Positions 1,017 to 19,851 of a DNA stretch of 64,000 nt are shown in pieces. Numbering within the stretch: the first letter of the stretch is position 1; every line of letters begins with the position of its first letter. Source of the DNA: a virus. Made by a program: the position numbers and the translations under genes. The stretch spans positions 1-64,000 of IMG/VR virus record IMGVR_UViG_3300045919_000097. One strand, 5' to 3'. The notes beneath the pieces are model-generated. The model searched no databases, was not told the origin of the DNA, and saw only the letters and a list, made by a program, of their open reading frames with translations.

Positions 1017-3053
1017 TCAATACTTTTTGGTCTTGACTGGCGCATCATTCAAGTGCGCTTGGATCGCTGCTGGCAAGGCGAATCCCCACTTTTCAAGGTT
1101 CCTGACGATGTAGTATCGGTCAGTCTTGCCTTTTGCTGTGATTGGCTTTCCGCCAAGTGCGTAGATAATGCCAACACGACGGAGTTCACGGCCGAGTCCA
1201 TTAGCCGTCGTTCCAGTTTTGCCATCTGGGTCATACAAGTTAAGTAGCTCTCGGTTTGTGTAGAGGTCATGGTGTAGATCAATCTGGCCGACTTTGAGGA
1301 TCTCTTCAGGAGATGTCAGGAGTGCTGAGACCCATGCACCAAGATCTGAGCGGACGTCAGCGATCATCCGTTCCTTTGCGGCCGTGCGGTATGCAGGTGC
1401 AGCTGGATTGAAGTCACTGCAGTCCACCTCATGCATCAAGTAGTTGAAGAGTGCTGCGGGTCCTGTGGTTTCAAGCCACAGTCCATAGTCTACGTAAAAC
1501 GCTTCATCGAGTGGAGGTGAAACGATCTCATGTATAAAAGCACGCCTGTCGTCGTCTTCAAGGAACAACGCTGTTGGTCCGTTAGCGGTGAAGTAGTAAT
1601 TAATACAGTCGGGCACGGTGAAAGATTGGACGTGCTTAATGTTAAGACGCAATTCCTTTTGGGTAATGAACTTCTTGAGACGGTCTGAATCATGACGTTT
1701 ATCTGAGCCAGTGACGTCATCGCCCATGACAAACTGCTTGTTCTCTGCCCATTCGTTGAATCCGTCATACAAGTCTTTCTGGTTGAGTTCAGTGAAGTTC
1801 TTCCCGTAGATGGCACCCATCGTGTATCCAATGAGCGACTTCCCAGTACCATGCTTAACACCCCATAGCAGCGCAGACGTGAACAGCTTTGTCCCTGGGT
1901 ATTGCAGTGGATACGCCAACCACTTGATGAACCAGTCTCTTGCAGCGTTGTCGTTCTTGAATAGGTGTTCAATAAGGTCTAGGAACGGCTGCACAACACC
2001 CTCTTCTGGGCTGCATCCCCAACCTGGCCAAGTATTCCATTGTTTCCGCCCATGCTGCTCGACTAGCTGCTCATGGCCTGGCATATACGTCAGCTGGTCA
2101 GCTTCGACCCGTAACGGCCACTTGAGCCAAGCAGCAGCTGCAGACACTGAGCGTATCGAGATTGCACCTGATGGTGACAGATACTGCTCAGCAAATTCTG
2201 TGGTCAGCGCGTGATCCTTGAAGGCTGAGGGTGCAACCTTTTGGCCTGTGTCTCTTACGAGCACTATGCCCGGGTTTTTAACGTAAACATATTTGTTGCT
2301 GATGTTGAACAGCGGTTGGGCCAGCGTGAGGATCTGGGCAGTATCGTCCATGAGTGTCTGGAAGCTCTCAGTGTTGCGGACGACCAGATAGTCATCAAGG
2401 CCAGTCTTGCCATCGTCTATCACGCTTGGCATGGGAAGTACATACGGAATTGCTCCGCGAGATGCCAAGACTTCTGCCAGCTCATTGAGTGCATTGCACA
2501 CATTCTCATTGGTCCTTGTGTCTGAGTCGTAGCAGATGAACACACGACGCTTGATCCAGTTTATCTGTTCAAGCTCAGGCAACAGCATGAAACCAGACTT
2601 GGCTGACTTATACGACTGCACACCACCAAGGCCGATTGTGGCAAACCCTTCCTTGCATGCCTTGGCAGCTTTTAGTTCACCTTCGGTTATGATCAGAGGT
2701 TCATTAGGATCATCTAGGATATCATCCCACGCAACGTTGGTAGGGAAGTACGCGGCTATACCAGAGTCCGGTGGCTGCAAGTAGCGCAGTGGTTTCTTTT
2801 TGGACTGAGCATCAAACCCGCCAGGTTCCTTAAGGATACGAACCCGGCTGTATTCAGGCCAATGTGGTTTGAATGTGAACGGCTTGCCTGTACGAGGATC
2901 CATGTAATTGAATACAAGGGCAGGAAGCGGTGGGTAACTCTTATCAACGGTCGTTGCTGACTCAACATACGTGATGTGCAGCTGCTTAGCATCTGCTAGA
3001 GTAAGACCGGAGGATTCGAGTTTCTTGGTGGCAAGTTCTTTGGCTTCAGCCAT
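1017..3053 (-). CDS. Bifunctional primase-helicase (DUF3854 toprim-like plus DUF5906 SF3 helicase)
   Basis: A 678-residue replication protein predicted to make primers and unwind DNA at the phage fork. The N-terminal third has the toprim-like signature of DUF3854: IITEGELKAAKA near residue 120, GLGGV near 142, and the acidic YDSDT near 175. The C-terminal half is a D5/DUF5906-type superfamily 3 helicase: Walker A GVKHGTGKS near 400, the acidic MGDDVTGSDKR, then FTANGPTAL and DDRRAFIHE (sensor and arginine finger). The start at 3053 is supported by AGAGGTGG eight bases upstream. It is the largest gene of the left leftward arm. The family assignment is firm; primase activity is inferred from the fold. 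Confidence 0.88.
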   Translation of the reverse strand: MAEAKELATKKLESSGLTLADAKQLHITYVESATTVDKSYPPLPALVFNYMDPRTGKPFTFKPHWPEYSRVRILKEPGGFDAQSKKKPLRYLQPPDSGIAAYFPTNVAWDDILDDPNEPLIITEGELKAAKACKEGFATIGLGGVQSYKSAKSGFMLLPELEQINWIKRRVFICYDSDTRTNENVCNALNELAEVLASRGAIPYVLPMPSVIDDGKTGLDDYLVVRNTESFQTLMDDTAQILTLAQPLFNISNKYVYVKNPGIVLVRDTGQKVAPSAFKDHALTTEFAEQYLSPSGAISIRSVSAAAAWLKWPLRVEADQLTYMPGHEQLVEQHGRKQWNTWPGWGCSPEEGVVQPFLDLIEHLFKNDNAARDWFIKWLAYPLQYPGTKLFTSALLWGVKHGTGKSLIGYTMGAIYGKNFTELNQKDLYDGFNEWAENKQFVMGDDVTGSDKRHDSDRLKKFITQKELRLNIKHVQSFTVPDCINYYFTANGPTALFLEDDDRRAFIHEIVSPPLDEAFYVDYGLWLETTGPAALFNYLMHEVDCSDFNPAAPAYRTAAKERMIADVRSDLGAWVSALLTSPEEILKVGQIDLHHDLYTNRELLNLYDPDGKTGTTANGLGRELRRVGIIYALGGKPITAKGKTDRYYIVRNLEKWGFALPAAIQAHLNDAPVKTKKY

Positions 3054-3192
3054 GTGCCACCTCTATAGAGGGTGCCAACACGACGCAGACGGCAATTTGC
3101 TGAGGACCACCTGTGAAAGCAACAGTCTGGATTTCGGGCCAGAGGTTGCGCGCACTATCTGCGCCGCGTTGACGAAACCGATTGTATGTCAT
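3046..3192 (-). CDS. Possible small ORF upstream of the primase gene
   Basis: A 48-residue frame from ATG at 3192 whose TGA overlaps the first codons of the primase-helicase gene. That arrangement would allow translational coupling and would fill an otherwise empty 150-bp gap. The product has no recognised motif and no good ribosome-binding site. It may be non-coding leader sequence instead. Confidence 0.3.
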   Translation of the reverse strand: MTYNRFRQRGADSARNLWPEIQTVAFTGGPQQIAVCVVLAPSIEVAHG

Positions 3193-3207
3193 AAGGGAAA
3201 GTGGTGT

Positions 3208-3681
3208 TTATTTATGTTCTTTTTTGAAGAGTTCTGAATAGTAATTCAGTTCTTCCTCGCTCATCCTTGTGCAGATGTAGCGGCCTTCGATACGTTCGCC
3301 AGTACGAGAATGCTTAAGGTAGATTTCCTTTTCGAAGGTTCTTGTGTTGCCGACTCGGACCCGGATTGAGGTCTCGGTGACCATCATTAGTTCAGCAGCC
3401 TCCTTCAATGAACAAGGTTTTGGGAGCATCTGATTCTGTACCTCGACCCAGTAACGCTTCAAATGTAGCCGACGAAGCTCCACAAGGCGTTTGAATGATT
3501 TACGCGCTGCTGAGTTCCTTGCTTCTTGGTGCAAGGCAACACGGTTCTTCATAAACGTGTTCTCGATTTTGTGGTGCAAGCACAATGCTTCGATCTGCTC
3601 AGATAATTCAAGTCTCTTCTTGAGCTGGATACATTTCAGCACATCTTCGAGCTTTGCTCCAAGCTCTTGGTTCTTAGCCAT
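3208..3681 (-). CDS. Putative helix-turn-helix regulator beside the divergent control region
   Basis: 157 residues if translation starts at the ATG at 3681, which has GGGGA five bases upstream; an earlier ATG at 3693 lacks one. The N-terminal 90 residues are charged and helical, probably coiled coil, with a Cys/His pair (LCLHHK). Residues near 95-115 (SLKEAAELMMVTETSIRVRVG) look like a MerR/excisionase-type helix-turn-helix, followed by a short beta segment (GERIEGRYICTRM). It is the first leftward gene next to the early/late switch region, a typical place for a phage transcription regulator. DNA binding is inferred and its target is unknown. Confidence 0.6.
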   Translation of the reverse strand: MAKNQELGAKLEDVLKCIQLKKRLELSEQIEALCLHHKIENTFMKNRVALHQEARNSAARKSFKRLVELRRLHLKRYWVEVQNQMLPKPCSLKEAAELMMVTETSIRVRVGNTRTFEKEIYLKHSRTGERIEGRYICTRMSEEELNYYSELFKKEHK

Positions 3682-4006
3682 TCCATTCCCCATACATTAA
3701 ATAGAAGGACTAAATTCTAGCCCGTTTTAGCCTTTAGCGGAATAAGCGCGAAAACGCTCCTACTACCCCTATATTAGGGTGCTATAGACTTCTCTCTTAT
3801 TCTATTCTTAGAATTCTCTAGAGCTACCTTTTGTTTGCTAAGTATACGATTCCGCTAAGAATTTAATTCTGCTTTTCTATTTACTTTTGCTTGGTTTTAT
3901 GTTATACGCGCTGAAATTGATTAGTTGTCGGCCCATTGCGCTGTGATTTGTGAGCGAAGTCGTAACGTGCAACGCACCGCGCACATAGTGGACCGCACCA
4001 AGTACA
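3682..4006. promoter_or_regulatory. Divergent control region between leftward and rightward blocks
   Basis: About 325 bp without a convincing gene. It is AT-rich, unlike its surroundings. An inverted repeat TTAGCGGAAT (about 3733) / ATTCCGCTAA (about 3849) encloses smaller palindromes: CCCTA-TAT-TAGGG near 3764-3779, AGCG-cgaaaa-CGCT near 3747-3760 and an AGAATTCT palindrome near 3811. A rightward promoter-like sequence is at 3880-3908. This is the point where transcription diverges, so operators for a switch protein are likely, but none can be assigned from sequence alone. Confidence 0.6.
3880..3908 (+). promoter_or_regulatory. Candidate rightward promoter for the late block
   Basis: TTTACT (3880-3885), 17-bp spacer, then TATACG (3903-3908) preceded by TG, an extended -10. 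It is the best match upstream of the small terminase gene, about 100 bp before its start. It is weaker than the leftward early promoters, as expected if a phage activator is needed. Confidence 0.4.
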
Positions 4007-4804
4007 ATGCGCTCAGTTCAATCACAACGAGCGAAGGACAAACCTGTGGCCACTAAGACCCAGGTCAAGCAGCAGGCTGTAAAGCCAGCGGCAAAGGCCA
4101 AAGCACAAACAGTCATTGATGCACCACGCAAACCATCTGCGCGTGCTTCAATCAATTCAGCGTACAAAGCACGGCAAAGCAAGGGCATTGTCAGACCTGC
4201 CCCAGTCGTGGACATCTTGCCAGACGGTCGTAAGGTCAAAGTGCAGAGCAAAAGGGGCAATGCACCTGGCAGCCAAGACGTGATCATCCACAAGGACAGC
4301 TGGATGAGGCACGGGATCCAGTCGTTCACACCACTGACCTCGGTCACAGTCCCTGCGCTGCTAGGTGCTATCGCGGCCACTGGGAACCTCACACTAGCAT
4401 GCGAGCAGCTGAACATGAGCAGGCTGTCTGTGTACGCGTTCAAGGCTGAAAGCCCAGAGTTTGCCAAGGCATTGAACGAAGCGCAGCAGCTAGGTGTCGA
4501 AGCATGGAAGGACGCAGCAGCCAAGCGCGCATTCCAAGGCTGGGAGCGTCCCATCTACCAGCAAGGCTTGCAGGTTGGTGCTGACCGCCACTTCAGTGAC
4601 ACGCTTGCTCTTGCCTTCCTCAAGGCCGCAGACCCAGAGCACTTCCAAGACCGGAGCCGCATGGAACTAGGACCTGCGGGTGCAGATGGTGGCGGCTTGT
4701 TCTCAGGCAAGACTGAGGAAGACATCAACGAAGCCCTTACCAACAAGATGAAAGCACTGGCCATCGTTGTCGAGAGCAGCAAGAAGACCGGCACAGACGT
4801 ATGA
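4007..4804 (+). CDS. terS: Terminase small subunit
   Basis: 265 residues. The first 60 residues are Lys/Ala/Gln-rich and disordered. The central part (VPALLGAIAATGNLTLACEQLNMS, then VYAFKAESPEF) has the helix-turn-helix pattern of small terminase subunits that recognise the packaging site. The C-terminal part carries the typical DPEHFQDRSRMELGPAG segment of phage small terminases. It ends inside the start of the large terminase gene (GTATGA overlap), so the two are coupled. The start at 4007 has a poor ribosome-binding site, so a downstream start is possible. The role, ring-shaped DNA recognition for headful or cos packaging, is known for the family. Confidence 0.8.
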   Translation: MRSVQSQRAKDKPVATKTQVKQQAVKPAAKAKAQTVIDAPRKPSARASINSAYKARQSKGIVRPAPVVDILPDGRKVKVQSKRGNAPGSQDVIIHKDSWMRHGIQSFTPLTSVTVPALLGAIAATGNLTLACEQLNMSRLSVYAFKAESPEFAKALNEAQQLGVEAWKDAAAKRAFQGWERPIYQQGLQVGADRHFSDTLALAFLKAADPEHFQDRSRMELGPAGADGGGLFSGKTEEDINEALTNKMKALAIVVESSKKTGTDV

Positions 4805-6480
4805 AGATCCCCACCACGCTCGCAGCCACCAAGACCAAGCCGCAGTTCCACGTTCCCAAGTTCAGGGCTGTCACAGCAAGCCCCATGATGCGTGAAGACA
4901 AGCTGTCGTTGTACACGGTGGCTGACGAGATGGAGCGGAGGCTGTGTGAATCGTCGCTGCACGCGTTCTTGCAGTTCGCCTGGCCAATCATGGAGCCGGG
5001 TCGTATGTTCGTCGACAACTGGCACCTGCGTGCCATCTCAGAGCATCTCGAGGCCGTGAGCAGGCGGGAAATTACTCGGCTCCTCATCAACGTGCCGTTC
5101 CGTACGTCTAAGTCCACAATCACGTCGGTTGCCTGGCCAGCATGGACCTGGATCCACGACCCGAGCCATCAGTGGTTGTGTGGCAGCTATGCGTCTAAGC
5201 TCGCCATCCGTGACAACTTGAAGATGCGTCGCTTGGTCACAAGCTCTTGGTACCAGAAGCATTGGGGTAGCAAGGTGCGGCTGGCATCGGACCAGAACGA
5301 GAAGATCAGGTTCCAGAACGAATCGATGGGTTACCGCATTGCGTTCGGTATGACGGGCGGAGTCATGGGCGATGGTGGTGACACTGTGCTCATTGACGAC
5401 CCGCACGACCGCAACGGTGCGCACTCAGAGGCCGAGCGCGAGACTGCATTGACCACGTTCGACGAGGGCATCATCAGCCGGTTGAACGACCCCATTGACG
5501 GTGCCATCTGCATCATCATGCAGCGGCTGCACCAGAATGATCTGAGCGGCCACGTGCTGAAGCAAGGCGGCTGGGACCACCTCATGCTGCCCATGGAGTA
5601 CGAGCCGCAGCGTCGGTGCAAGACGTCGATCGGGTTCCAGGACCCAAGGAAAAAGGACGGAGAACTCTTGTGGACAGCACGGTTTGATGAATCAACTGTC
5701 GAGAAGCTGAAGCGGTCGCTAGGTTCGTACGGAGCAGCTGGGCAGTTAGCACAACGGCCTGCGCCTGACGGTGGCGGGATCCTTAACACAGAGTTCTTCG
5801 AGCTTTGGCCAAGGAACAAGGACCTGCCAGACCTGTTCTTTGTGCTGCAGTCGTACGACACAGCATTCACTGAGAAGCACCAGGTCAAAGGCGATCCTTC
5901 AGCAGGCACCATCTGGGGCATCGGCGAGCACGAGTTCGGTGAACGCAAGGGCAAGAAGTTTGCCATACTGCTCGATGCTTGGGCTGACCAGCTCAGCTAC
6001 CCGAACCTCAAGAAGAAGGTCATGGAGGATTGGCAGGCCACATACGGCGGGATCAAGGACGACCAGCTGCACCCAAGCCGTAGGCCAGACGCCATCCTCA
6101 TCGAGAAGAAAGCAAGTGGGCAGTCATTGATCCAAGACCTGAGAGCACGCAACCTGCCGGTCCAGGACTACGACCCAGGACGTGCTGACAAAGTGGCTCG
6201 TGCACACATGACAGCACCATTCCTTGAGGACTGCGTGTTCTACCTCATCGAATCAAAGAAGGACCCAGGCAAGCCAGTCACGTGGGCACGTCCATTGGTA
6301 GAACAATGTGAGCAGTTCCCGAATGGCGAGCACGACGACCTTGTGGACACGTTTACACAAGCCTGCATTTACTTCCGTGATTCTGGCTTCCTGGAGTTCG
6401 AAGTTATCCCTGATGACGAGGTTGAAGAAATCGACTACGCCACACAAAGAAAAGCGCGTCAGAACCCGTACAAGCGCTAG
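4801..6480 (+). CDS. terL: Terminase large subunit
   Basis: 559 residues; the ATP-driven DNA packaging motor and nuclease. The ATPase domain has a deviant Walker A (VPFRTSKST near residue 98-106) and Walker B TVLIDDPHD near 195. The nuclease domain shows the acidic metal ligands of the RNase H fold: QSYDTAFT near 350, LIEKKASGQ near 436 and HDDLVDT near 515. Length and motif order match phage large terminases. The start codon overlaps the stop of the small subunit. A candidate structured RNA and terminator follow the stop. In place of the usual GxGKS/T the loop reads FRTSKST, a form also found in other phage terminases. Confidence 0.95.
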   Translation: MKIPTTLAATKTKPQFHVPKFRAVTASPMMREDKLSLYTVADEMERRLCESSLHAFLQFAWPIMEPGRMFVDNWHLRAISEHLEAVSRREITRLLINVPFRTSKSTITSVAWPAWTWIHDPSHQWLCGSYASKLAIRDNLKMRRLVTSSWYQKHWGSKVRLASDQNEKIRFQNESMGYRIAFGMTGGVMGDGGDTVLIDDPHDRNGAHSEAERETALTTFDEGIISRLNDPIDGAICIIMQRLHQNDLSGHVLKQGGWDHLMLPMEYEPQRRCKTSIGFQDPRKKDGELLWTARFDESTVEKLKRSLGSYGAAGQLAQRPAPDGGGILNTEFFELWPRNKDLPDLFFVLQSYDTAFTEKHQVKGDPSAGTIWGIGEHEFGERKGKKFAILLDAWADQLSYPNLKKKVMEDWQATYGGIKDDQLHPSRRPDAILIEKKASGQSLIQDLRARNLPVQDYDPGRADKVARAHMTAPFLEDCVFYLIESKKDPGKPVTWARPLVEQCEQFPNGEHDDLVDTFTQACIYFRDSGFLEFEVIPDDEVEEIDYATQRKARQNPYKR

Positions 6481-6484
6481 TCCA

Positions 6485-6615
6485 CAAGTGCAAAGTGGCT
6501 AGAATCTGCCAAACGACGAGCGGAGTAGTCTCATGGTAGAATTGGTTGTCTCCCTAGCCGCTACTTTGCAGTTGCCGGCTCTTCGCCCAGGGCTCACAAG
6601 GTCCTGGGCATTTTT
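6485..6615 (+). ncRNA. Candidate structured RNA between terL and the ART-domain gene
   Basis: A 130-nt intergenic stretch begins with a long helix. TGCAAAGT plus GGCTAG (6489-6502) pair with CTAGCC plus ACTTTGCA (6554-6570) around one 3-nt bulge. CAA/TTG pairs (6485-6487 with 6572-6574) extend it across a G-G mismatch, giving 17 base pairs in all. The enclosed 51 nt can form further short pairings, such as ACGAC (6513-6517) with GTTGT (6545-6549). An intrinsic terminator follows directly. This looks like a stable small RNA or a cis-acting attenuator for the next gene. It does not fold as a normal tRNA. It was not matched to any named RNA family. Confidence 0.55.
6585..6615 (+). terminator. 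Intrinsic terminator just before the ART-domain gene
   Basis: A perfect 7-bp stem GCCCAGG (6585-6591) / CCTGGGC (6603-6609) with an 11-nt loop, followed by ATTTTT. The next start codon, ATG at 6618, comes only 3 nt after the T-run, leaving no room for a ribosome-binding site. The element could therefore end the terminase transcript or act as an attenuator for the following genes. Confidence 0.8.
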
Positions 6616-6617
6616 CC

Positions 6618-7937
6618 ATGGCTAATTGGGCTCAACTTATCAAGTCTTCGGGCGGAACTCTTCGCCGCATGGCCGAAGAGATGGAAACACTGCAACTTCC
6701 TGAACAGCTCAAAGGGATCTTCCCAACAGCAACTGGTGAGACCATCCCAGTTTATCATGGTTCTCCACACGCTTTTGACGAGGTCAATTTCACTGACAAC
6801 CTGCGCACAGGTGAAGGTGCAATGGCCTTCGGACCTGGCGGCTACACATCTGGCAACCGACCACTGGCCAAGCACTATGCAGACACGCTGAGCAAAGGCA
6901 AATTCATCCAGCCACGCAGGCCAAGCGGTCCGTTGGGTGACACATTCCTCACAATGCAGAAAGCACTGCGCCTTGATCCTGAAGCAGCTATTGCATACAT
7001 GCAAGGAAAAACTTTCAACAAGGCTGAGACCATTGGGCTGACAAACCCAAATCGAGTCATGCCCACTGGTGAAAAAGCGGTTTACAACTATCGTCCTGGT
7101 GACGACTTGCCTGTATCAACTGGCAATGACGTCAACATTGATGCTTACCGCGAGTGGTTGAAAGAAAAAGGTGTTACCCCTGAGGAACTCAGGCTTCGCC
7201 GCATGGTTCCAGGCAACATGGATGAACTGCTTCGCATTGGTGATCGCCTGGCAGGAGGACCCAGTCCCATTCTGGGCTCAAAGCCAGCAGGTACAAGGGT
7301 ATTGCGTGATGGTGTTGGTCCTTTCCGTAACCGGATGGATCTGAATCCTGGTGAAGAATGGATGGGTAATGACACAAGCGTTGTCAACAACCTGCGTGCA
7401 ACGGCCGCGGCACAAGCAGGTGTGCCAGGTCCTATGTACAAAGCATCGCTCAGCAACTATTCGCCAGGTACTGGGACAGGTCGTGTCCCGATTGGCGACC
7501 TTGGTCCTTTGAAGAACTGGGATGGCAAGATTATTCCTGGTAAGCCTGGGCAGCAGATGCCAAGTACAGATCCAAAGATCTACGAAATGGCATTGCACGC
7601 TAACCCTAACCTGCTGCTGTTCCAAGACTATCCGCTTGAAGCCCAGACAGCAATCCACGGTGCACTCAGCCGTCTATACGACATTTCAGGTATCAAGCCA
7701 TTGCCAATGACGGCAAAGGGCGAAGAGCTCATCAAAAAGCTGCCAAACGACGCACGTGGCATGCAGATGATGAACGAAGCAGGTATTCCTGCATCAGCGT
7801 TCTTGCGAGCTGGCCGTAGAGGCGATAGCTCGATCCCATCGGCGTTCAATCCTGACGACTACAACTTTGTCATTCACAATGACGATGCCCTTAAGATTCT
7901 TGATGTCAAGAACAAGAAGAAAGGCGGAACGGTATGA
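6618..7937 (+). CDS. Polyvalent virion-type protein with ADP-ribosyltransferase-like domain
   Basis: 439 residues. Residues about 43-95 (VYHGSPHAFDEV, then TGEGAMAFGPGGYTS and AKHYAD) match the ADP-ribosyltransferase-like domain common in phage polyvalent proteins, where such domains are thought to modify host proteins on infection. The rest has no recognised fold, and the protein ends in KKKGGTV, a variant of the GGxV motif shared by other virion proteins here. It overlaps the next gene by 4 nt. The start is uncertain: the ATG at 6618 directly follows a terminator, and ATG at 6669 is an alternative that keeps the domain. Catalytic activity is inferred from domain similarity. Confidence 0.7.
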   Translation: MANWAQLIKSSGGTLRRMAEEMETLQLPEQLKGIFPTATGETIPVYHGSPHAFDEVNFTDNLRTGEGAMAFGPGGYTSGNRPLAKHYADTLSKGKFIQPRRPSGPLGDTFLTMQKALRLDPEAAIAYMQGKTFNKAETIGLTNPNRVMPTGEKAVYNYRPGDDLPVSTGNDVNIDAYREWLKEKGVTPEELRLRRMVPGNMDELLRIGDRLAGGPSPILGSKPAGTRVLRDGVGPFRNRMDLNPGEEWMGNDTSVVNNLRATAAAQAGVPGPMYKASLSNYSPGTGTGRVPIGDLGPLKNWDGKIIPGKPGQQMPSTDPKIYEMALHANPNLLLFQDYPLEAQTAIHGALSRLYDISGIKPLPMTAKGEELIKKLPNDARGMQMMNEAGIPASAFLRAGRRGDSSIPSAFNPDDYNFVIHNDDALKILDVKNKKKGGTV

Positions 7938-10900
7938 CCGAGCCCACCGAAAAGCAGATCAAAGCTGGCAATTACCCAAAGGGCCACGTCTATGCCCATG
8001 GGATGCGCATCAGCATCGAAACGCCTGCTGACGAGTTCCGTAGCGGAACGGACAAAGAAGGCAACGAGTGGTCAAACCGCATGCAGTACGACTACGGATA
8101 CATCCGTGGCACTGAGGGCAACGACGGTGACCATCTTGACGTGTTCCTGGGTCCTGACTACAAGGACCACCAGTTTCCAGTACACGTAATTGACCAGCAC
8201 GATCCAGATACTGGCAAATTTGACGAGCATAAGGTCATGATGGGCTTTCCTGACAAAAAGTCAGCACTTGATGCTTATCATGCGCATTATCCTGAAGACT
8301 GGAAGGGCGCTAAAGCCATCACTCCGCTCCATGTCGACGACTTCAAGGACTGGGCACTGAAACCAGGCATCAGGAAGAAGCCTCTGTCTCAGGTCAAAGG
8401 CTATGCTGAAGGCGGTTCTGTCGGCGGGTTCTTGGCTGATCCACAAAGCTGGGACGACATGGGAAAGAACCTTGGAGCCACTGCCAACCGGACTCTTATC
8501 GGCTTGGCGGGCCTTGGTCCCGACGTCATCAACTGGGGCCTAAAGCAGATACCTAGATCGCGTTCTCTCAGCGACGTTGTTAAAGGCAATACCGATCTTG
8601 GCTGGGGCTCATCTGAGCCAATCGGAGGGACGGACTGGCTCAACCGCAAAGCCAGGGAGCATGGTATCGCCACAAGCAGTGGAAACGAGACGGCAGACGC
8701 CTGGGGCGATGCTGCTTTTGGCCTGGCAACTGCAAGCCCCACAGCACTCATGAATACGCTTGGCAAAGGGGCTCGTGGTGTTGCTCGTGGAGTAGGCCAG
8801 GCGATTGACCAAGGCATGCAAGGCGAGGGTGCTCTCAGCAAGGTACTGGCTCCAGTCCAGCCAGCTTATGCTGTGAAGCCTAAAGGCGGCAACTGGTCTA
8901 CGACACTTGGATCAAACCCTTCGCACCTTACTTTCCATGATATTACTGGAGATTCTGTCGCTACTAATCAATGGCGCGACAAAACACTTGCCAAGTATAT
9001 CAGTACACAACTTGGAACCGCTGACGATCCGTTACTTGCCCTTGAAAAAGAAGGAAGACTCCACGTTGACAAAGACCAGCTTATCGAGTCTGCAATGGAC
9101 GGGCGCTATGGCGAAGCATACGGATATGACGGAGACCTTTTCAAAGGAGATGCTAGACACGAGGAGCTGACAGGAAGGAAGTTGCGCACGCCCTGGGAAG
9201 CAAATGCAGATTCTTCTATGCGGTCACACGGTCCCCAGACAGAAATACAAGCACTCAAGGATCTTGCACACAAGCGTCCGGCAGATGGTCGTTCATGGAT
9301 TGATCACGGTGCAGAAGTCGATCCTGATACTGGCGAAGTCCTGTACCATGAACTTCCTCTCAAGGCTTGGTCTGAAGCCCATCCTGGAAATGCTTACCTT
9401 GCCAAACACCAGTGGCTGGAATCTGCTCCAAGAGGTACAGACATCTGGAACGTGACAAGCCTTGACAACCTTGGTTTCCAGCACATGCTTGATTATTTGG
9501 GGTCTGCTACAGATGCCCATGCTGCACTTGAACACCATGGATCAATTGAGGCTATGCGTACAGCAGCCCAAGGTGCTCTTCCAAATGCTGCAATTCACGA
9601 CCTCATTCCAATGGTTGAGCGCAATCTGCATTTGTCGCCAGAGCAATTGTCGCGTACGTCAGTTGCCGACGCATCAGCAAAAACCTCAGAGTGGAACAAA
9701 CTGCTGAGTTCTAGGAAAGCAACAGAGACTTCTGCACAGGTACCTACGTTCAGGGAATACGAAAATGGTTCCTACTGGAAGTCTATCCCAGACGTGAACA
9801 CAGACAAAGATGCCCTTTCTTATGCAATGGCACACGGCAGAGATGCCGGATGGTGCACTATGCAGAATGGACTGTGCAGCCTTTATGGCAGCGGAGGAAG
9901 CCGCTTGCACATCCTTCACGATGCTGAAGGCAAGCCAAAAGTCCAGATCATGACAAAAGAAGGTGATTCCACAATGGAAGGTGCTTCTCAAATGTTCCAT
10001 CAGGCACACGGTCGTTTTCCAGGAAGCGTAAACGAACTTGATGAATGGGCAGGTGAAAACGGAATCCGCATCAATGACAGCACTGAACCTGGTAACCCGT
10101 CTATTGCTGAAATCAAAGGGCGCCGTAATGGTAGTCCAGATGCTTCGGATATTCCAGCCATCCAAGACTTTATCAAGACGTATTCACCAAACTGGGATGA
10201 TATTGGTGATTTGCGCAATTCTGGAATGGCAAAGTACCAGGGCAAGTACGCTCCGATAAGAGAAGTCGAAACGCTTCTTAAGCCTCGCATCAAAGAAGCT
10301 CGAGATTTTCTTGATAACCATCCGGCATTTGAGTCACATCGGCAGGCTGAAAAAGATTTCTTAGATTTTCTCCATAGTGGAAACAGCAGGTATGACGAGC
10401 AAGGCACGGCTCAAATGAGGCACCTTGAGCGTGGAGCAGGACAGCCACTGCATCAAAACATGCCGTATACCATGCGTGAAATGAAGGCAATGCTGGACTA
10501 CCCGGCAGATTGGGTCAACGGTAGAGACGAGTCAAAATATGATGTGCTTCAAAAGCACCTTGGAAGAATAGACGCTTTGAAGAGCCTTGTCCAAGATGGT
10601 GCTCATCGTGATGTCCACACATATCCGCCAAAGTTTGCGTCAGGTGGCACAGTTGGTGGCAACAACCTGCAGATTGCACCTCTTGGTGGCTGGGGCTGGG
10701 GTTATATGAATAGCGGTCAACCAGGAACAATGCCTGCGCCTCAGCCTGTACAAGCGCCAGACTTCAGCATTGAGAAGTTCAACCCAGGCGGAAACAGCAC
10801 AAGCATTATCAATCCTGGTGGAGATCACACTGATTTTAGCTCTGGTGCGCGTGGTGCAGATACTGGCATTGCAGGTGGCATTGGAAAGATTGCAAGCATG

Positions 10901-11563
10901 ACTGGTGCATTCAACACCATTGCAAGGGATCCTAACCTTGGTGCTCTTAGCTCTTATGCAGGTGCTATTGCAGGTGCTGCTGACGGCCAGTACGGTGGCG
11001 TTGGTGGACTCATTGGGCGTGCAGCAACTGACGGAAACCCAATTGGAAAGCTTGCAGGTACCTTGCTTGGCGGACTTGTAAGCGACACTCCAATGTCCAC
11101 AAGAGACGCAATGAGCACAGCTGTAGGATTTGTGCCTGGTATTGGAACCGCTTATAGCTTAGGTAACTTCGTTACTGGAGGCGCTCTTGCAGACGCAGCG
11201 TTTGGATCCAATGTAAAACCCACAGAAAGTGGAGGTTACGTACCTGCTCAGCCTGGGTGGTTTGGTAACTTTGGTCTACAATCCACACCAAAGATCGATG
11301 CCAGCAACCTTGCAGCTTCAATGAACAACCCAGACTATAGCAACGAAGTCCACCTTGCTATTACTCAGCCAAATACTGTCAACACAAACAATATGGACAA
11401 TGAAAAGCCTGCGGCCCCTGTAGCGCCCGCACCAGCACAATCAGACTACAGCAACGAAGGACGTAACTATGGTGGTCCAGGTGGAAATAGTGGAGCTGCT
11501 ACAGGCGGCAACAATGGCGATGCATCAGGCGGTGGCGATCGTGGTACCCGCGGCGGATTCTAA
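7934..11563 (+). CDS. Giant polyvalent protein with phage InPase domain
   Basis: 1209 residues. Residues 1-150 match the phage 'inorganic pyrophosphatase' domain (InPase, PF18823): GNYPKGHVYAHGMRISIE, YDYGYIRGTEGNDGDHLDVF and DEHKVMMGF. A YAEGGSVGG motif follows near residue 157, then an Ala/Gly-rich, partly hydrophobic region. Around residues 630-665 a GWCTMQNGLCSLYGSGG / LHILHDAEGKPKVQI segment resembles the PcfJ-like domain of polyvalent proteins. A second GG motif (FASGGTVGG) is near residue 902, and the last 300 residues are Gly/Ala/Asn-rich. Domain fusions of this kind next to the portal are usually carried in the virion and injected. It overlaps the upstream gene by 4 nt. The enzymatic roles are unproven. 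Confidence 0.72.
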   Translation: MTEPTEKQIKAGNYPKGHVYAHGMRISIETPADEFRSGTDKEGNEWSNRMQYDYGYIRGTEGNDGDHLDVFLGPDYKDHQFPVHVIDQHDPDTGKFDEHKVMMGFPDKKSALDAYHAHYPEDWKGAKAITPLHVDDFKDWALKPGIRKKPLSQVKGYAEGGSVGGFLADPQSWDDMGKNLGATANRTLIGLAGLGPDVINWGLKQIPRSRSLSDVVKGNTDLGWGSSEPIGGTDWLNRKAREHGIATSSGNETADAWGDAAFGLATASPTALMNTLGKGARGVARGVGQAIDQGMQGEGALSKVLAPVQPAYAVKPKGGNWSTTLGSNPSHLTFHDITGDSVATNQWRDKTLAKYISTQLGTADDPLLALEKEGRLHVDKDQLIESAMDGRYGEAYGYDGDLFKGDARHEELTGRKLRTPWEANADSSMRSHGPQTEIQALKDLAHKRPADGRSWIDHGAEVDPDTGEVLYHELPLKAWSEAHPGNAYLAKHQWLESAPRGTDIWNVTSLDNLGFQHMLDYLGSATDAHAALEHHGSIEAMRTAAQGALPNAAIHDLIPMVERNLHLSPEQLSRTSVADASAKTSEWNKLLSSRKATETSAQVPTFREYENGSYWKSIPDVNTDKDALSYAMAHGRDAGWCTMQNGLCSLYGSGGSRLHILHDAEGKPKVQIMTKEGDSTMEGASQMFHQAHGRFPGSVNELDEWAGENGIRINDSTEPGNPSIAEIKGRRNGSPDASDIPAIQDFIKTYSPNWDDIGDLRNSGMAKYQGKYAPIREVETLLKPRIKEARDFLDNHPAFESHRQAEKDFLDFLHSGNSRYDEQGTAQMRHLERGAGQPLHQNMPYTMREMKAMLDYPADWVNGRDESKYDVLQKHLGRIDALKSLVQDGAHRDVHTYPPKFASGGTVGGNNLQIAPLGGWGWGYMNSGQPGTMPAPQPVQAPDFSIEKFNPGGNSTSIINPGGDHTDFSSGARGADTGIAGGIGKIASMTGAFNTIARDPNLGALSSYAGAIAGAADGQYGGVGGLIGRAATDGNPIGKLAGTLLGGLVSDTPMSTRDAMSTAVGFVPGIGTAYSLGNFVTGGALADAAFGSNVKPTESGGYVPAQPGWFGNFGLQSTPKIDASNLAASMNNPDYSNEVHLAITQPNTVNTNNMDNEKPAAPVAPAPAQSDYSNEGRNYGGPGGNSGAATGGNNGDASGGGDRGTRGGF

Positions 11564-11572
11564 GGAAGTAAC

Positions 11573-14500
11573 ATGAAAAAGACACGCGTCCATCCAATGG
11601 CAGATCTTCCTCCTGTAGACCAGGACAATTCAACTGCACCAGAAGACACGGACCAGGAGTCAGTTATCCCTGGAATTCCTGACGGCGATGGTGACTCAGA
11701 CGTCATTGACGATGACAATATGGAACTGCAAGAGGATGGCAGCTATATTATTAAGGACGATGACGATGAAGATGAAAAAGGTTCTGTTGAGTTTGACTCA
11801 AACTTGGCAGATGACGTCATTCCTGAAGATGAACTGACCCAACTGGGGACCGAATTCATTGAACTGATTGCCGCAGACAAAGAAGCCCGCAAGGACCGTG
11901 ACAAGCAATACGCTGAAGGTATCCGCAAGACTGGACTTAGTGGTGGTAAGAATTCAGGTGCTGACTTTGACGGGGCCAGCCAAGTTGTCCACCCGATGAT
12001 TGCCAAGGGTTGCGTTGACTTTGCATCCAAAGCCATCAAGGAACTGTTCCCATCAGCCGGGCCTGTACGCACACAGATCATGGGTGACCAGACAGAGTCT
12101 AAGATTGACCGCGCAGAGCGCAAGAAGACGTACATGAACTGGCAGCTCACTGAGCAGATTCCAGAGCACCGTCCTGAATTTGAAAAGATGCTAAGCCAGC
12201 TGCCACTGGGAGGATCCCAATACAAACGCTGGTGGCGTGATGCTGATATGAAACGGGCGCGTACTGCTGCCGTCTATATCGACGATGTCTTCCTGCCATT
12301 TGACCAAAACGATTTCTATACGACGCCGCGGCTGACGCACAGGGAGTTCCTTGGACGAGCTGAATTTGAAGCTCGTGTAGCCTCTGGTCTTTACAGGGAA
12401 CTTGACGTCTCAAACCTTGGAGATACTCCAGAACGCAGCGATGCAGAAAAAGCCTCACGTGAAGTTGAAGGTGTTAATGATGACGCTGCAGCTTATCTGT
12501 CTACAGGCGGAACACGTGAAACCTACTGTGTTTACGCAAACCTTGAGTTGAAAAGTGATCCTCTCACCAAAGGCAAACTGGCTCCGTACGTTCTTCACGT
12601 TGAAGAGTATGGATCAAGTGTACTTGGCATTTATCGTAACTGGGCTGAAAAAGATGAGCGCCGGCAAAAACTGCATTGGATGGTTGAATACAACTTCATC
12701 CCATGGCGCGGTGCTTATGCAATTGGACTTGCTCACCTGATCGGAACCTTGAGTACTGCATCAACAGGTGCACTCAATGCACTCCTGGACTCTGCACACA
12801 TTGCAAGTTTCCCTGGTGGCCTTAAACTCAAGTCTGGAAGGACGTCTGGCCAGACTGTCCAAATCAACCCTACTGAGCTGGTTGAAATTGATTCTCCAGC
12901 AGGTGTTGACGACATCCGCAAGTTGGTCATGGCTTTCCCGTTCAATGGGCCCAGCCAAGTGCTTAACGTACTGCTTGAATGGCTTACTCAACAAGCTGAA
13001 ATGGTTGTTAGCACAGCTTCTGAAAAGATTGCTGATGCAGGTGCCAATATGCCTATGGGCACGGCTTTGGCTCTTATTGAAGGTGGTAGCACAAACTTCA
13101 GTGCTATTCATGCACGCTTGCACCACTCAGCCCGCAAAGAGCTTGAAATCCTGCACCGTCTCAATGCCACATACATGAAGGATCAAGAGACCGTTGAGGA
13201 GCTTGGTGAACTGGTTGTCTATAAAGAAGACTTCCAGGGTCCAATGGACATCATCCCAGTCAGTGACCCCAACATCTTTAGTGAAGCTCAGCGGTACGCT
13301 CAACTGCAAGCTGTTCTGCAACTAGAAGCAATGCCGCAGTTCCAGCCATTGTTCAAGCCTGAACGTTTGCTAGTACGGGCTCTCAGGTTGCTCCAGATCA
13401 GTTACGCAGACGATATTGCAAACCTGCCTAAAGATCCAAAGCGGATGACCTCCGTGGATGAAAATGCGGCAGCTGCTCTTGACGATGGAACACCGCTCAA
13501 GGTTTATGAGGAGCAAGACGACCTTAGCCACCTGGAAAGCCACGTTACGTTCATGACGTCTCCGCTGCTTGGTGCAAACCCGTTGATTGGTTCTACGGCG
13601 CTTCCAAAACTGCTGGCTCACTGCAAAGAGCACTTGATTGCTTACTATCGCAAGCACCACAAAGCAGCGACAGAAGCATTATCTGCCATTGCAAAGCACC
13701 AGAACATGCCTCTTGACCAGCACCGCGCAGAGTCGTTGGGACACTCATTTGCTGACAAGGCAATGGCCCAGCAGCTGTCCTCAATGGTGGCACCAGGCCT
13801 TGAAAAGGCGGAGAAGCTTGCACAGCAGTTCATGCCAAAGCCACCTGCAAGCCCTGACAAACTGGCAGAGATCGCGTCCAACGAAAAGATTGCTGGTCAG
13901 ACTGCCCAACTTGAAATGCAAAAAATGCAAGCTGCACAACAAGCTGATATGCAAAAGCACCAGCTTGAATTGCAAAGCAAAGCCGCTGAGCGGCAAGCCA
14001 ATGACCAGAAAGAACTTCAACGGATGCAGATTGAGCTGTCATTCAAGTCTCAAGAGGCTGAAAAAGAAAGGCGCAGCAAGCTTGAACTGAGACAGCTTGA
14101 ACTAAATGCAGAAGCTGCAAACAACGAACAGGATCGTGCCCTTACACAAAGCACAGCAGTTCTTGCCGCAAATATAGAAAAGATGCAGGCTGATAATGAC
14201 AGCAGGATTGCACAACTGACTTTAATGGTGCAAGACAAGCAAGTAAAATCTGGTGAAGAAAACAAACGCATTCTTGCTGATATGAAAGCTCGAAGCGATC
14301 AAGCTTTGGCCGTTTTACAGTCTATGCTAGCTAAGCAAGAAGAAAGCGCAGAAGCAGCTTCTAAACCAGACATTAACTCAGTTATCACCAGTTTGCTAGA
14401 AAGCGTCCAGGAAAATGCGCAGCAATTAGCTCAGCACATGTCAGAGCAAAACGAGATGTCTAGCCAGACGCTATCAGAAATTGCAGAAGGAATGAAATCA

Positions 14501-14599
14501 CTGCATAAGGCTCACTCAGCCCCTAGAATTGCCCAATATATACGAGATCCATCAGGAAATGTTTTAGGCGTTAAATCCACAATCGAAAACCAGGAGTAA
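11573..14599 (+). CDS. Portal protein with long C-terminal coiled coil
   Basis: 1008 residues, longer than most podovirus portals (about 500-750). The first 75 residues are highly acidic. Residues about 80-720 carry the portal core: DFDGASQVVHPMIAKG, the wing segment GGSQYKRWWRDAD, FSAIHARLHHSARKELEIL and QISYADDIANLPKDP. The last 230 residues are Gln/Lys/Glu-rich coiled coil (KMQAAQQADMQKHQLELQ and on), expected to form a long barrel or rod inside the head. The twelve-subunit ring is the DNA gate and the docking site for terminase and adaptor. It starts after an AAGGAAGT ribosome-binding site and lies nine bases after the preceding gene. Confidence 0.85.
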   Translation: MKKTRVHPMADLPPVDQDNSTAPEDTDQESVIPGIPDGDGDSDVIDDDNMELQEDGSYIIKDDDDEDEKGSVEFDSNLADDVIPEDELTQLGTEFIELIAADKEARKDRDKQYAEGIRKTGLSGGKNSGADFDGASQVVHPMIAKGCVDFASKAIKELFPSAGPVRTQIMGDQTESKIDRAERKKTYMNWQLTEQIPEHRPEFEKMLSQLPLGGSQYKRWWRDADMKRARTAAVYIDDVFLPFDQNDFYTTPRLTHREFLGRAEFEARVASGLYRELDVSNLGDTPERSDAEKASREVEGVNDDAAAYLSTGGTRETYCVYANLELKSDPLTKGKLAPYVLHVEEYGSSVLGIYRNWAEKDERRQKLHWMVEYNFIPWRGAYAIGLAHLIGTLSTASTGALNALLDSAHIASFPGGLKLKSGRTSGQTVQINPTELVEIDSPAGVDDIRKLVMAFPFNGPSQVLNVLLEWLTQQAEMVVSTASEKIADAGANMPMGTALALIEGGSTNFSAIHARLHHSARKELEILHRLNATYMKDQETVEELGELVVYKEDFQGPMDIIPVSDPNIFSEAQRYAQLQAVLQLEAMPQFQPLFKPERLLVRALRLLQISYADDIANLPKDPKRMTSVDENAAAALDDGTPLKVYEEQDDLSHLESHVTFMTSPLLGANPLIGSTALPKLLAHCKEHLIAYYRKHHKAATEALSAIAKHQNMPLDQHRAESLGHSFADKAMAQQLSSMVAPGLEKAEKLAQQFMPKPPASPDKLAEIASNEKIAGQTAQLEMQKMQAAQQADMQKHQLELQSKAAERQANDQKELQRMQIELSFKSQEAEKERRSKLELRQLELNAEAANNEQDRALTQSTAVLAANIEKMQADNDSRIAQLTLMVQDKQVKSGEENKRILADMKARSDQALAVLQSMLAKQEESAEAASKPDINSVITSLLESVQENAQQLAQHMSEQNEMSSQTLSEIAEGMKSLHKAHSAPRIAQYIRDPSGNVLGVKSTIENQE

Positions 14600-14602
14600 T
14601 AA

Positions 14603-15007
14603 ATGACTATTCAATATTCCACTACTCACCGCACCAATGCTATGAGTCAGTTAAATACTGACATTGGAGCCAATGCAGTTATCAAGGTGTTTACAGGAGC
14701 GGCCCCGGCAAACTGTGGAACTGCTGATACAGGCACGCTTCTTGTCACATTTGCCGGTAATGCTGGTGGATTTGGATCTGCATCTGCTGCTGTATTGACA
14801 GCCGCTGCGGTAGCCGCTGCAACAGCCTCAGGAACAGGAACGGCGGGGTATTTCCGCATCTACCCAAGCGCTGCAACCACTACCAACGCGGTGGTTCAGG
14901 GAACCTGCGGATTGTCTGCTGCTGACATGATCCTGACCAATACGTCAATCACCAGCGGGCAGACTTGCAACTTTACTAGCCTGACAGTTACAGCCTTCGG
15001 AGTTTAA
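14603..15007 (+). CDS. Conserved small virion protein
   Basis: 134 residues, Ala/Thr-rich and beta-rich with no charged core, typical of phage decoration or accessory virion proteins. The N-terminal pattern (IQYSTTHRTNAMSQLNTDIGANAVIKVFTGAAPANC) is familiar from a widespread uncharacterised phage protein family located between portal and capsid genes. It starts three bases after the portal stop, with AGGAG overlapping that stop. The exact place in the particle is unknown. Confidence 0.7.
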   Translation: MTIQYSTTHRTNAMSQLNTDIGANAVIKVFTGAAPANCGTADTGTLLVTFAGNAGGFGSASAAVLTAAAVAAATASGTGTAGYFRIYPSAATTTNAVVQGTCGLSAADMILTNTSITSGQTCNFTSLTVTAFGV

Positions 15008-15008
15008 C

Positions 15009-15356
15009 ATGGCGCAGGGTACAGCAACGCTTGACTTTGGTGCCTATCCTGGCGCAAGTGATGCGTCTGTGGCGGTTACTGGTCAGACAGCGATTACGGG
15101 GTCATCTTTGGTTGAGGCATGGATATTTCCTGCTGCAACTACGGATCACAGTGCTGATGAGCATTGGGTTGAATCATTAAGGGTGTTTGCAGGAAACGTA
15201 GTCGCCGGTACAGGGTTTACTATTTACGGGCGCAATGAAAGTGAACTGTTTGAACCTGTGTCGCAGTCTGGTGGCAGTAAATCATTTGCCGGTGCTGGTG
15301 GTGGAACTGGAACTAGGTTGTATGGCAAATGGAACATTGGCTGGGTGTGGAATTAA
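15009..15356 (+). CDS. Conserved small virion protein
   Basis: 115 residues, beta-rich (TATLDFGAYPGASDASVAVTG at the start, LYGKWNIGWVWN at the end). It belongs to a common but uncharacterised phage family found next to the preceding gene. The conserved ADEHWVESLRV segment is in the middle. It starts immediately after the upstream stop and is probably translated together with it. No catalytic motif is visible. It is likely a minor structural or assembly protein. Confidence 0.65.
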   Translation: MAQGTATLDFGAYPGASDASVAVTGQTAITGSSLVEAWIFPAATTDHSADEHWVESLRVFAGNVVAGTGFTIYGRNESELFEPVSQSGGSKSFAGAGGGTGTRLYGKWNIGWVWN

Positions 15357-15365
15357 GGAAAAATC

Positions 15366-16019
15366 ATGGCAATTCAAGTACAAGGTAATGGCGGTGTAAT
15401 TGCAGACGTTGGCGGAACAGCGTTTCGCGCGCTCAATACGCAAATCAAGCCCATTGAATACGGTGCTTTGGGACACTACAAAGCGACCCTGAGGATGTCC
15501 TCTACGGCAGCGCAAACGGCTAACTCGCGCTTGCTTGAGTTGCAAAACCCGTCTGCATCCGTGCTGATCATTCCTACTCGTTTGACAGTTCGGGCAATGC
15601 AAACCGCTGCAGGTACTGCACAGGAAAATTCACTTGATATTTACAAGGCCACCAGCTTTACGGTTGTGTCCAGCGTCAACGCGGTTACAGGTGCTGCAAG
15701 TAAGAAACGAACCAGCATGGGCGCATCTGCCGCTGCCCTGCGTTACTTGACACTAACTGGTGTTGCTGCTGGTATGACTGGTTCCACGGCAACTAAAGAC
15801 ACTTTGCCTATTGGAACCATCCCATACAACGTGGCGGCAGCTATTCAGACCTCTGGCCCGATTGCAAACGTTGACGTATTTGATGACGTTAACGGTACTC
15901 ACCCGCTTGTCCTTGCTCAAAACGAAGGAATGGTGATTGAAAACCGTGTGCTTAACGTGACGTCCTATGGCGTGACATGGTTTATTGATCTTGCATGGGC
16001 TGAAGTACTAGCTTACTAA
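15366..16019 (+). CDS. Probable virion structural protein
   Basis: 217 residues, predominantly beta with many small residues. It contains YGALGHYKATLRMSSTAAQTANS and a C-terminal NRVLNVTSYGVTWFIDLAWAEV segment typical of phage surface or decoration proteins of unknown fold. A GGAAAAATC ribosome-binding site precedes the ATG. It lies within the run of small virion genes between portal and capsid. Function unassigned. Confidence 0.6.
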   Translation: MAIQVQGNGGVIADVGGTAFRALNTQIKPIEYGALGHYKATLRMSSTAAQTANSRLLELQNPSASVLIIPTRLTVRAMQTAAGTAQENSLDIYKATSFTVVSSVNAVTGAASKKRTSMGASAAALRYLTLTGVAAGMTGSTATKDTLPIGTIPYNVAAAIQTSGPIANVDVFDDVNGTHPLVLAQNEGMVIENRVLNVTSYGVTWFIDLAWAEVLAY

Positions 16020-16022
16020 TCC

Positions 16023-17288: not shown

Positions 17289-17296
17289 GAGTAACT

Positions 17297-17500
17297 ATGG
17301 CCTCTGAAGCAGTATCCCAACACAAGCGGATGGCAATGAACAAAAGTACTGGTCACGTTTCTCGTGTATCATCTTTTGCCAAAGGGGGTTCAACAGGAAA
17401 CCTCAAAACCGGCATAAAAGAAAATCCAATCACCGTTTCAAAAATGAACAATGGCGTCCCAGGTATGAAAAAGGGTGGCAAGACAAAAGACGGATGCTGA
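17297..17500 (+). CDS. Small basic virion-associated protein with GG motif
   Basis: 67 residues, strongly basic, with SFAKGGSTGN near residue 28 and a C-terminal MKKGGKTKDGC. The FAKGG segment belongs to the (Y/F)AxGGxV motif family that recurs in several virion proteins of this phage. A GGAGTAACT ribosome-binding site precedes the ATG. A DNA- or head-associated role is plausible but unproven. Length and composition match short uncharacterised proteins found near phage capsid genes. Confidence 0.6.
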   Translation: MASEAVSQHKRMAMNKSTGHVSRVSSFAKGGSTGNLKTGIKENPITVSKMNNGVPGMKKGGKTKDGC

Positions 17501-17503
17501 TCA

Positions 17504-17683
17504 ATGAGCGAATCTTTAGTCATTGTTCTTCACAAAAGGCGTGACGACCTAGAGCAAAGTGTATTTGAGTTTCCTCCTTCCACATGGGATGAATTTCAGA
17601 GACGTCTTGGCCAGTGGATTGAGCTGACCAATCTTATCAACGAGCTTGAGCGACTTGCACAGGAGCAAACAAATGAAAGTTAA
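17504..17683 (+). CDS. Small hypothetical protein
   Basis: 59 residues from ATG at 17504 to TAA at 17681. The product is a soluble, mostly helical acidic/basic mix (LHKRRDDLEQSVFEFPPSTWDEFQRRLG). It begins three bases after the preceding stop and overlaps the next gene by 11 nt in another frame. That tight packing is the main support for its being real. No family recognised. Confidence 0.6.
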   Translation: MSESLVIVLHKRRDDLEQSVFEFPPSTWDEFQRRLGQWIELTNLINELERLAQEQTNES

Positions 17684-17957
17684 AATCACATACATCAGTG
17701 GCCTTACTGAGACCGTAATTCAAGAGTCAGCAGCAACCCTTGAAGAATTCTGCAACATTCACTTTGGTTCTGCTTGGGAGCAGGCCAAGGAGTTTGGTGC
17801 AACGGTTGAAGAGGTTATTGAAGAAGCTGCACTTGAAGTAGAAGTCCTGCTAGGTATGTCCACAATGGATCTGGGCGCAATCAACACTGATCAAATCCAG
17901 TCTTTGACAACTGAACAGCTGTCAGCACTGAAGCCAGAAGAAATCAAGGCCCAATAA
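17673..17957 (+). CDS. Hypothetical acidic protein
   Basis: 94 residues. The ATG at 17673 is preferred because AGGAG lies seven bases before it, inside the end of the upstream gene. The product starts with a beta segment (KVKITYISGLTETVI) and continues with acidic helices (LEEFCNIHFGSAWEQAKEFGATVEEVIEEAALEVEVLLG). Function unknown. It sits in the head-assembly cluster before the co-chaperonin. Confidence 0.6.
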   Translation: MKVKITYISGLTETVIQESAATLEEFCNIHFGSAWEQAKEFGATVEEVIEEAALEVEVLLGMSTMDLGAINTDQIQSLTTEQLSALKPEEIKAQ

Positions 17958-17967
17958 GCCACCGCTA

Positions 17968-17984: not shown

Positions 17985-18008
17985 CCTACATAGTGCTGAA
18001 GGAGCATC

Positions 18009-19828: not shown

Positions 19829-19851
19829 ACTCAAACTTTCAAGGAAACATC

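What the first reader, a model, noticed from the sequence alone, without database searches (positions are those of the whole stretch)
6485..6615. Structured RNA plus terminator between terL and the polyvalent genes
A 17-bp helix with one bulge and one mismatch closes a 51-nt interior, and an intrinsic terminator follows at once, ending three bases before the next ATG. A gap of this kind inside a densely packed late operon is unexpected. It could be a phage small RNA made by processing or termination, or an attenuator/riboregulator controlling the injected-protein genes.
Basis: partly seen in the sequence, partly recalled or inferred. Interest (0 to 1): 0.75.

Follow-up and report, generated by a model that had tools for sequence, protein, structure and literature searches.

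The report
Widespread phage small RNA resembling host's
The gap after the phage's DNA-packaging gene encodes a roughly 70-letter small RNA that recurs in over a hundred uncultured phage genomes in unrelated positions and looks like a re-targeted copy of a small RNA that beta-proteobacteria use to switch genes off, so phages may be borrowing a host control circuit.

Summary
The conserved object is a compact element at about 6547-6615: an unpaired 5' UGUCUCC, a hairpin (AGCCG/CGGCU) carrying GCAGUUGCC, a short UCUUC linker, then the intrinsic terminator. Pattern scans of IMG/VR found 130 distinct phage loci with the same layout. Their stems differ in sequence but stay complementary (helix score 13.06 against 10.84 +/- 0.27 permuted). 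They lie in unrelated contexts: after terL, before terS, before DNA polymerase, before the major head gene, after endolysin, at the end of late operons. That argues for a trans-acting sRNA rather than a cis-attenuator of the next gene. The family is not in Rfam. Its closest relative is the betaproteobacterial double-hairpin sRNA (RF02278; S17S, bdhR1), which shares the 5' site, the hairpin position and the UU(n)GCCC-terminator frame. One phage member scores 40.3 bits against RF02278 (cut-off 50), the window 24.3. The hairpin content differs: GCAGUUGCC instead of CU-rich. The long helix 6489-6502/6554-6570 is absent from relatives and no stronger than 15% of shuffles. Best explanation: a phage sRNA, cut from or started near the 3' end of a phage operon, that pairs with ribosome-binding sites like its host counterpart. 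Targets, host and transcription are untested.

The parts
4801..6480 (+). terL, terminase large subunit, the gene upstream of the element
   Evidence: phrog_38, E 1e-81; relatives L001-L003 at 76-80% identity
6489..6502 (+).
   Evidence: MFE; not significant by duplex energy; no room for it in L002
6537..6542 (+). -10-like TAGAAT, 6 nt before the UCUCC site; also in L002; no good -35
   Evidence: -10 matches are not enriched across type A members, so weak evidence for a promoter
6547..6615 (+). predicted 69-nt sRNA
   Evidence: own fold z -3.3; CM R1, built without the window or L002, scores 6541-6615 at 46.3 bits, E 8e-10
6547..6553 (+). 5' single-stranded anti-Shine-Dalgarno-like site UGUCUCC (GGUUGUCUCC from 6544)
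   Evidence: same 5' end as RF02278 host sRNAs; TTG precedes TCTCC in 7 of 35 type A members, p 1e-6
6556..6580 (+). hairpin 1: stem AGCCG (6556-6560) / CGGCU (6576-6580)
   Evidence: stems covary across 54 representative members: 13.06 vs 10.84 +/- 0.27 in 1000 permutations, maximum 11.76
6568..6576 (+). GCAGUUGCC core in the hairpin
   Evidence: shared with L002, L020, L021 and 126 further phage loci; exact core was required by the scans
6582..6588 (+). UUnGCCC pre-terminator motif (UUCGCCC)
6585..6615 (+). intrinsic terminator, hairpin 2 and U-tail, 3' end of the sRNA
   Evidence: downstream terminator in 59 of 128 viral pattern hits vs 5 in the reversed control and 0 of 9 GTDB hits
6618..7937 (+). 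next ORF, 439 aa, no PHROG match; 22% identical to the ORF after the element in L002

Best explanation
Positions 6547-6615 encode a small RNA of about 70 nt from a large, undescribed family of phage sRNAs. Its 3' end is set by its own intrinsic terminator. Its 5' end is made either by endonucleolytic cut of the operon mRNA just before UGUCUCC, as RNase E does for Bordetella S17S, or in some members by a promoter directly upstream. It acts in trans: the unpaired 5' UGUCUCC pairs with the Shine-Dalgarno region of mRNAs and lowers their translation, probably with Hfq on the U-tail, as for the betaproteobacterial double-hairpin RNAs (RF02278). The hairpin presents a second, phage-specific seed, GCAGUUGCC, where the host RNA has a CU-rich loop. 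Shown: the architecture, its recurrence in many phage contexts, stem covariation, terminator association and similarity to RF02278. Inferred: that it is transcribed and processed, that it binds Hfq, that it pairs with ribosome-binding sites, and that phage and host families share ancestry rather than having converged.
For: 130 distinct phage loci with core, UUnGCCC and terminator. Terminator directly downstream in 59 of 128 viral pattern hits vs 5 reversed, 0 of 9 chromosomal hits and 0 of 39 bare cores. Alignment-free stem covariation about 8 SD above permutation. A CM built without the window finds it at E 8e-10 and L002 at 2e-8. Unrelated contexts: after terL, before terS, before DNA polymerase, before major head protein, after endolysin, after internal virion protein. 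RF02278 similarity: window 24.3 bits, E 0.0017; L002 22.6; L307 40.3, E 1.8e-7. Reciprocally, the phage model finds host RF02278 loci at E 7e-5 to 0.02, and its single hit at E<=0.001 in 398 Pseudomonadota genomes is an RF02278-type RNA. RF02278 RNAs pair with RBSs and S17S is RNase E-processed (PMC11722255; PMC5688073). 69-nt fold z -3.3. A few members have a s70-like promoter, e.g. L319 CTGACA-17-TATAAT (read from the sequence).
Against: The scans required the exact core and UUnGCCC (one also UCUCC), so their invariance proves nothing and the CM E-value is inflated by selection. No Rfam gathering threshold is reached. No transcript data. The host of this phage is unknown, and its nearest isolate TerLs are from Roseobacter phages at 47%, so a betaproteobacterial host is not established. 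No target was found: AUGGCAACUGC starts are rare in member phages and in Burkholderiales. A -10 box is not enriched upstream of type A members. A scan that did not require the core shows that it is not universal: L452/L471 lack it.
Confidence: 0.66

Rival explanations
1. It is only an elaborate intrinsic terminator/attenuator that reduces expression of the genes after terL; the upstream hairpin has no function in trans.
For: A strong terminator sits between co-directional genes. In several phages the element lies where a drop in expression would make sense, such as before DNA polymerase or at the end of late operons.
Against: A plain terminator does not explain the recurring UGUCUCC, GCAGUUGCC and UUnGCCC in unrelated contexts, or the covarying upstream stem. 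Where the element lies before a convergent gene at the end of an operon there is nothing downstream to attenuate.
Confidence: 0.17
2. The hairpin with GCAGUUGCC is a protein-binding site (for example anti-termination or decay protection) acting in cis on the 3' ends of phage mRNAs.
For: The core lies in hairpins of differing stem sequence, as protein-bound loops do, and always at transcript 3' ends.
Against: In some members UUGCC is paired (GGCAA/UUGCC) and in others unpaired, so the presented loop differs. It does not explain the RF02278-like 5' site and linker.
Confidence: 0.12
3. The first reader's long helix 6489-6502/6554-6570 is the functional structure: a long-form precursor in which the sRNA seed is masked until cleavage.
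For: It is the MFE of the longer RNA and covers the 5' arm of the conserved hairpin. A long and a processed short form exist for S17 (PMC11722255).
Against: Absent from L002 and other members. Duplex energy reached by 15% of shuffles; no family-wide excess (mean z -0.31).
Confidence: 0.05

Closest known systems
Betaproteobacteria_toxic_sRNA / double-hairpin RNAs (Rfam RF02278; B. cenocepacia ncS03/05/27/62 and bdhR1; B. pertussis S17S)
   Same: 5' UGUCUCC site, one hairpin, short UU(n)A/GCCC linker into an intrinsic terminator with a long U-tail, 57-70 nt total; ncS27 and S17 also have a longer form cut to a short one
   Different: Host hairpin is CCACC/GGUGG-like with a CU-rich loop; the phage hairpin carries GCAGUUGCC with freely varying stems. 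Host genes are chromosomal; these lie inside phage operons. Score below the family cut-off.
NmsRb / RcoF1 / NgncR163 (Rfam RF02877), Neisseria sibling sRNAs
   Same: Hairpin, CAGUU-containing stretch, CUUnGC before a GCAUUUUU terminator; 24.7 bits on 6518-6615
   Different: Less than half the cut-off of 52 bits; tandem chromosomal genes in Neisseria; the alignment spans only part of the element
anti-hemB (Rfam RF02837, Burkholderia RNA 7)
   Same: CU-rich first hairpin, second hairpin and UUUGCCCC terminator; L035 30.8 and L287 26.1 bits
   Different: Below the 49.5-bit cut-off; the window scores only 13.9
Known phage-derived sRNAs reviewed in PMC12197685
   Same: Phage-encoded regulators acting by base pairing
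   Different: The review text does not mention betaproteobacteria, Burkholderia or anti-SD sRNAs

Membership tests
RF02278 Betaproteobacteria toxic sRNA | Rfam gathering score 50 bits | tested here: not met
   window 24.3 bits, L002 22.6, best phage member L307 40.3
RF02278 Betaproteobacteria toxic sRNA | 5' UGUCUCC single-stranded site | tested here: met
   UGUCUCC at 6547-6553; TTG before TCTCC in 7 of 35 members
RF02278 Betaproteobacteria toxic sRNA | first hairpin with CU-rich loop (CCUCCUCCUUU) | tested here: not met
   hairpin holds CUACUUUGCAGUUGC; host loops are CU-rich
RF02278 Betaproteobacteria toxic sRNA | UU(n)GCCC linker and intrinsic terminator | tested here: met
RF02278 Betaproteobacteria toxic sRNA | encoded in betaproteobacteria | tested here: inconclusive
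   phage host unknown; nearest isolate TerLs are from Roseobacter phages
RF02278 Betaproteobacteria toxic sRNA | inhibits growth when overexpressed; represses mRNAs at the RBS | not testable with these tools
   needs experiment
RF02877 NmsRb | Rfam gathering score 52 bits | tested here: not met
   24.7 bits
Phage GCAGUUGCC sRNA family (this work, CM R1) | 5' UCUCC, GCAGUUGCC hairpin, UUnGCCC, terminator | tested here: met
   46.3 bits, E 8e-10, model built without the window
Phage GCAGUUGCC sRNA family (this work, CM R1) | covarying stem around the core | tested here: met
   permutation test
Phage GCAGUUGCC sRNA family (this work, CM R1) | expressed as a discrete short RNA | not testable with these tools
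   no transcriptome available
tRNA | ARAGORN / Rfam tRNA match | tested here: not met

The most novel reading that the evidence does not exclude
Phages of freshwater bacteria share a mobile sRNA cassette that copies the host's double-hairpin sRNA: the same anti-Shine-Dalgarno 5' end and terminator frame, but with the second seed swapped to GCAGUUGCC. It would enter the host's sRNA network during infection and redirect it to new mRNAs, spreading between unrelated phage lineages and inserting at operon ends.
Probability: 0.42. Interest if true: 0.86.

Novelty: new variant of a known kind. Interest (0 to 1): 0.72.

Why it matters
Few phage sRNA families are known to span unrelated phage lineages. 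This one is common in uncultured phages, absent from Rfam and not found in the isolate-phage collection by the searches run here. It resembles a conserved host regulator closely enough to suggest viral mimicry of an RNA regulator with an exchanged seed. If confirmed, it would make host sRNA hijacking in lytic infection directly testable, and the covariance model built here can find more members.

Tried and rejected
Long helix as the conserved structure: not in relatives, 15% of shuffles as strong, no family excess. tRNA or decayed tRNA (the stretch 6519-6560 looks like a tRNA 5' half): no ARAGORN or Rfam support. Cis-regulator specific to the next genes: contexts vary too much. Conserved promoter directly upstream: -10 matches not enriched. 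Target at AUGGCAACUGC starts: perfect match at window 49024(-), a 102-aa Lys/Ala-rich protein, and in L340, but not enriched among MATA starts; rpsB in Burkholderiales does not generally fit; SD-AUGGCAACUGC about 0.2 per genome. Chromosomal source with the same core: the one exact-pattern GTDB scan gave 9 hits, none with a terminator; CM hits in 200 Burkholderiales had no core. INPHARED phages: only terminator-level or chance similarity. Relatives of the downstream protein: none found in IMG/VR.

Full report
The window is 64,000 of the 64,899 bases of one IMG/VR phage record. terS (4007-4804) and terL (4801-6480) are identified by PHROGs. The 137-base gap 6481-6617 precedes a 439-aa ORF without a family match. 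An intrinsic terminator occupies 6585-6615 and has the strongest stem of 17 terminator-like sites in 3000-20000. However, 297 of 2000 shuffles of the upstream part pair with the element as well, and other members show no such excess.

Comparison with TerL relatives moved the focus. After terL, L002 (78% TerL identity) has GTCTCC...GCAGTTGCCCGCCTCTTAGCCC followed by a terminator, but none of the long helix. L001 has a degenerate version at the same place: stem GCCG/CGGC, loop with GCAGUCC, then a terminator. L003, L004 and more distant relatives have nothing comparable. A pattern taken from the window and L002 found further terminator-bearing copies in IMG/VR. Looser patterns gave 130 distinct loci.

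Controls. Of 128 viral hits to the core plus linker pattern, 59 are followed by a terminator on the right side, against 5 in the mirror position. The figures are 0 of 9 for chromosomal hits and 0 of 39 for bare cores. The stem around the core changes freely but stays complementary: ACCGC/GCGGU in L020, CCCGGC/GCCGGG in L232, CCCCAUG/CAUGGGG in L295, CUCC/GGAG in L277, GAUUGGC/GCCAGUC in L191. Swapping 3' flanks among 54 representatives lowers the mean helix score from 13.06 to 10.84 (SD 0.27, maximum of 1000 runs 11.76). This test uses no alignment and the pairing was not part of the type A search patterns; the one type B scan did fix a GGAG...CUCC pair, which permutation does not reward because it is then shared by those members. 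A covariance model of 25 type A members, window and L002 left out, scores the window at 46.3 bits, E 8e-10, far above anything else in 64 kb. The E-value is flattered because members were chosen with motifs seen in the window.

Two layouts occur. Type A, to which the window belongs, has UCUCC upstream of the hairpin. Type B has GGAG-CAGUUGCC-(R)CU-CUCC followed by UUCUUnGCCC, and lies 2-18 nt after the last gene of late operons. Flanking genes by PHROGs: internal virion or transglycosylase proteins (L213, L290, L020), DNA polymerase downstream (L295, L232), scaffold/protease-like protein upstream and major head protein downstream (L279, L351), head assembly (L326), terS downstream (L323), endolysin upstream (L307, L188), terL (window, L002). 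A cis-regulator of one gene set would not travel like this, whereas an sRNA gene would.

Relation to host RNAs. Small stretches scanned against Rfam give sub-threshold matches to betaproteobacterial sRNAs: RF02278 (window 24.3 bits, E 0.0017; L002 22.6; L307 40.3, E 1.8e-7), anti-hemB (L035 30.8; L287 26.1) and NmsRb (window 24.7). Host RF02278 RNAs read GUUGUCUCCUCCAYCCUCCUCCUUUGGUGGAUUUAGCCC plus terminator. Phage type A members share the 5' site (TTG before TCTCC in 7 of 35, 0.5 expected, p 1e-6) and the linker, but carry GCAGUUGCC in the hairpin. In reverse, the phage model picks out host RF02278 loci. Its only hit at E<=0.001 in 398 Pseudomonadota genomes is such a host RNA. Descent and convergence cannot be separated with these data.

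How it works. The 69-nt form folds with UGUCUCCCU unpaired, the hairpin, and the terminator. Literature on the host relatives gives the model: S17S is a 67-nt RNA cut from a longer transcript by RNase E; it pairs with ribosome-binding sites through its 5' end and first loop, and represses (PMC11722255). The Burkholderia homologues carry CU-rich unpaired stretches, and the authors compare them with the NmsRs, which pair with RBS regions (PMC5688073). Many type A members begin within tens of bases of an upstream stop codon with no promoter-like sequence, which favours processing. Some have a promoter-like pair, and the window and L002 share a lone TAGAAT. The second seed's target is unknown: the complement GGCAACUGC covers the start codon of a phage gene at 49024(-), but this is not a trend.

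Limits. Core invariance is partly by construction. A scan that required only GGTTGTCTCC and TTTnGCCCC found terminator-bearing loci with the core (L292/L313, L312) and one group without it (L452/L471). No expression data, host assignment or isolate member was found; INPHARED gave nothing.

Noticed in passing
window 6519-6560: GCGGAGTAGTCTCATGGTAGAATTGG resembles the 5' half of a tRNA (acceptor and D-arm consensus); no tRNA is called and no 3' half follows.
   Followed up: partly
window 48716-49024 (-): 102-aa Lys/Ala-rich protein (MATAKKASAAKTEKPAAK...) whose start AUGGCAACUGCC is perfectly complementary to the sRNA core; weak PHROG match of unknown function.
   Followed up: partly
L452 and L471 (near 6552 and 4643 of the reverse complement): Same 5' GGTTGTCTCC and TTTTGCCCC-terminator frame but a GGGC-GTAA-GCCC hairpin instead of GCAGUUGCC: a sister element without the core.
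   Followed up: no
L319:6790-6870, L297, L331: Members with a convincing s70 promoter (e.g. CTGACA or CTGACG, 17-nt spacer, TATAAT) right before the element, unlike most others.
   Followed up: no
L001:6675-6745: Degenerate version of the element after terL: stem GCCG/CGGC kept, core eroded to GCAGUCC, UCUCC lost.
   Followed up: partly
L188, L250: Type-B-like elements within a few hundred bases of predicted tRNA genes, L188 next to an endolysin gene; possible arm of a mobile or integration site.
   Followed up: no
window 7934-11563: N-terminal 150-200 aa of this 1209-aa protein matches DarB-like antirestriction, minor head and virion protein families, fitting the 'polyvalent protein' label.
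   Followed up: no
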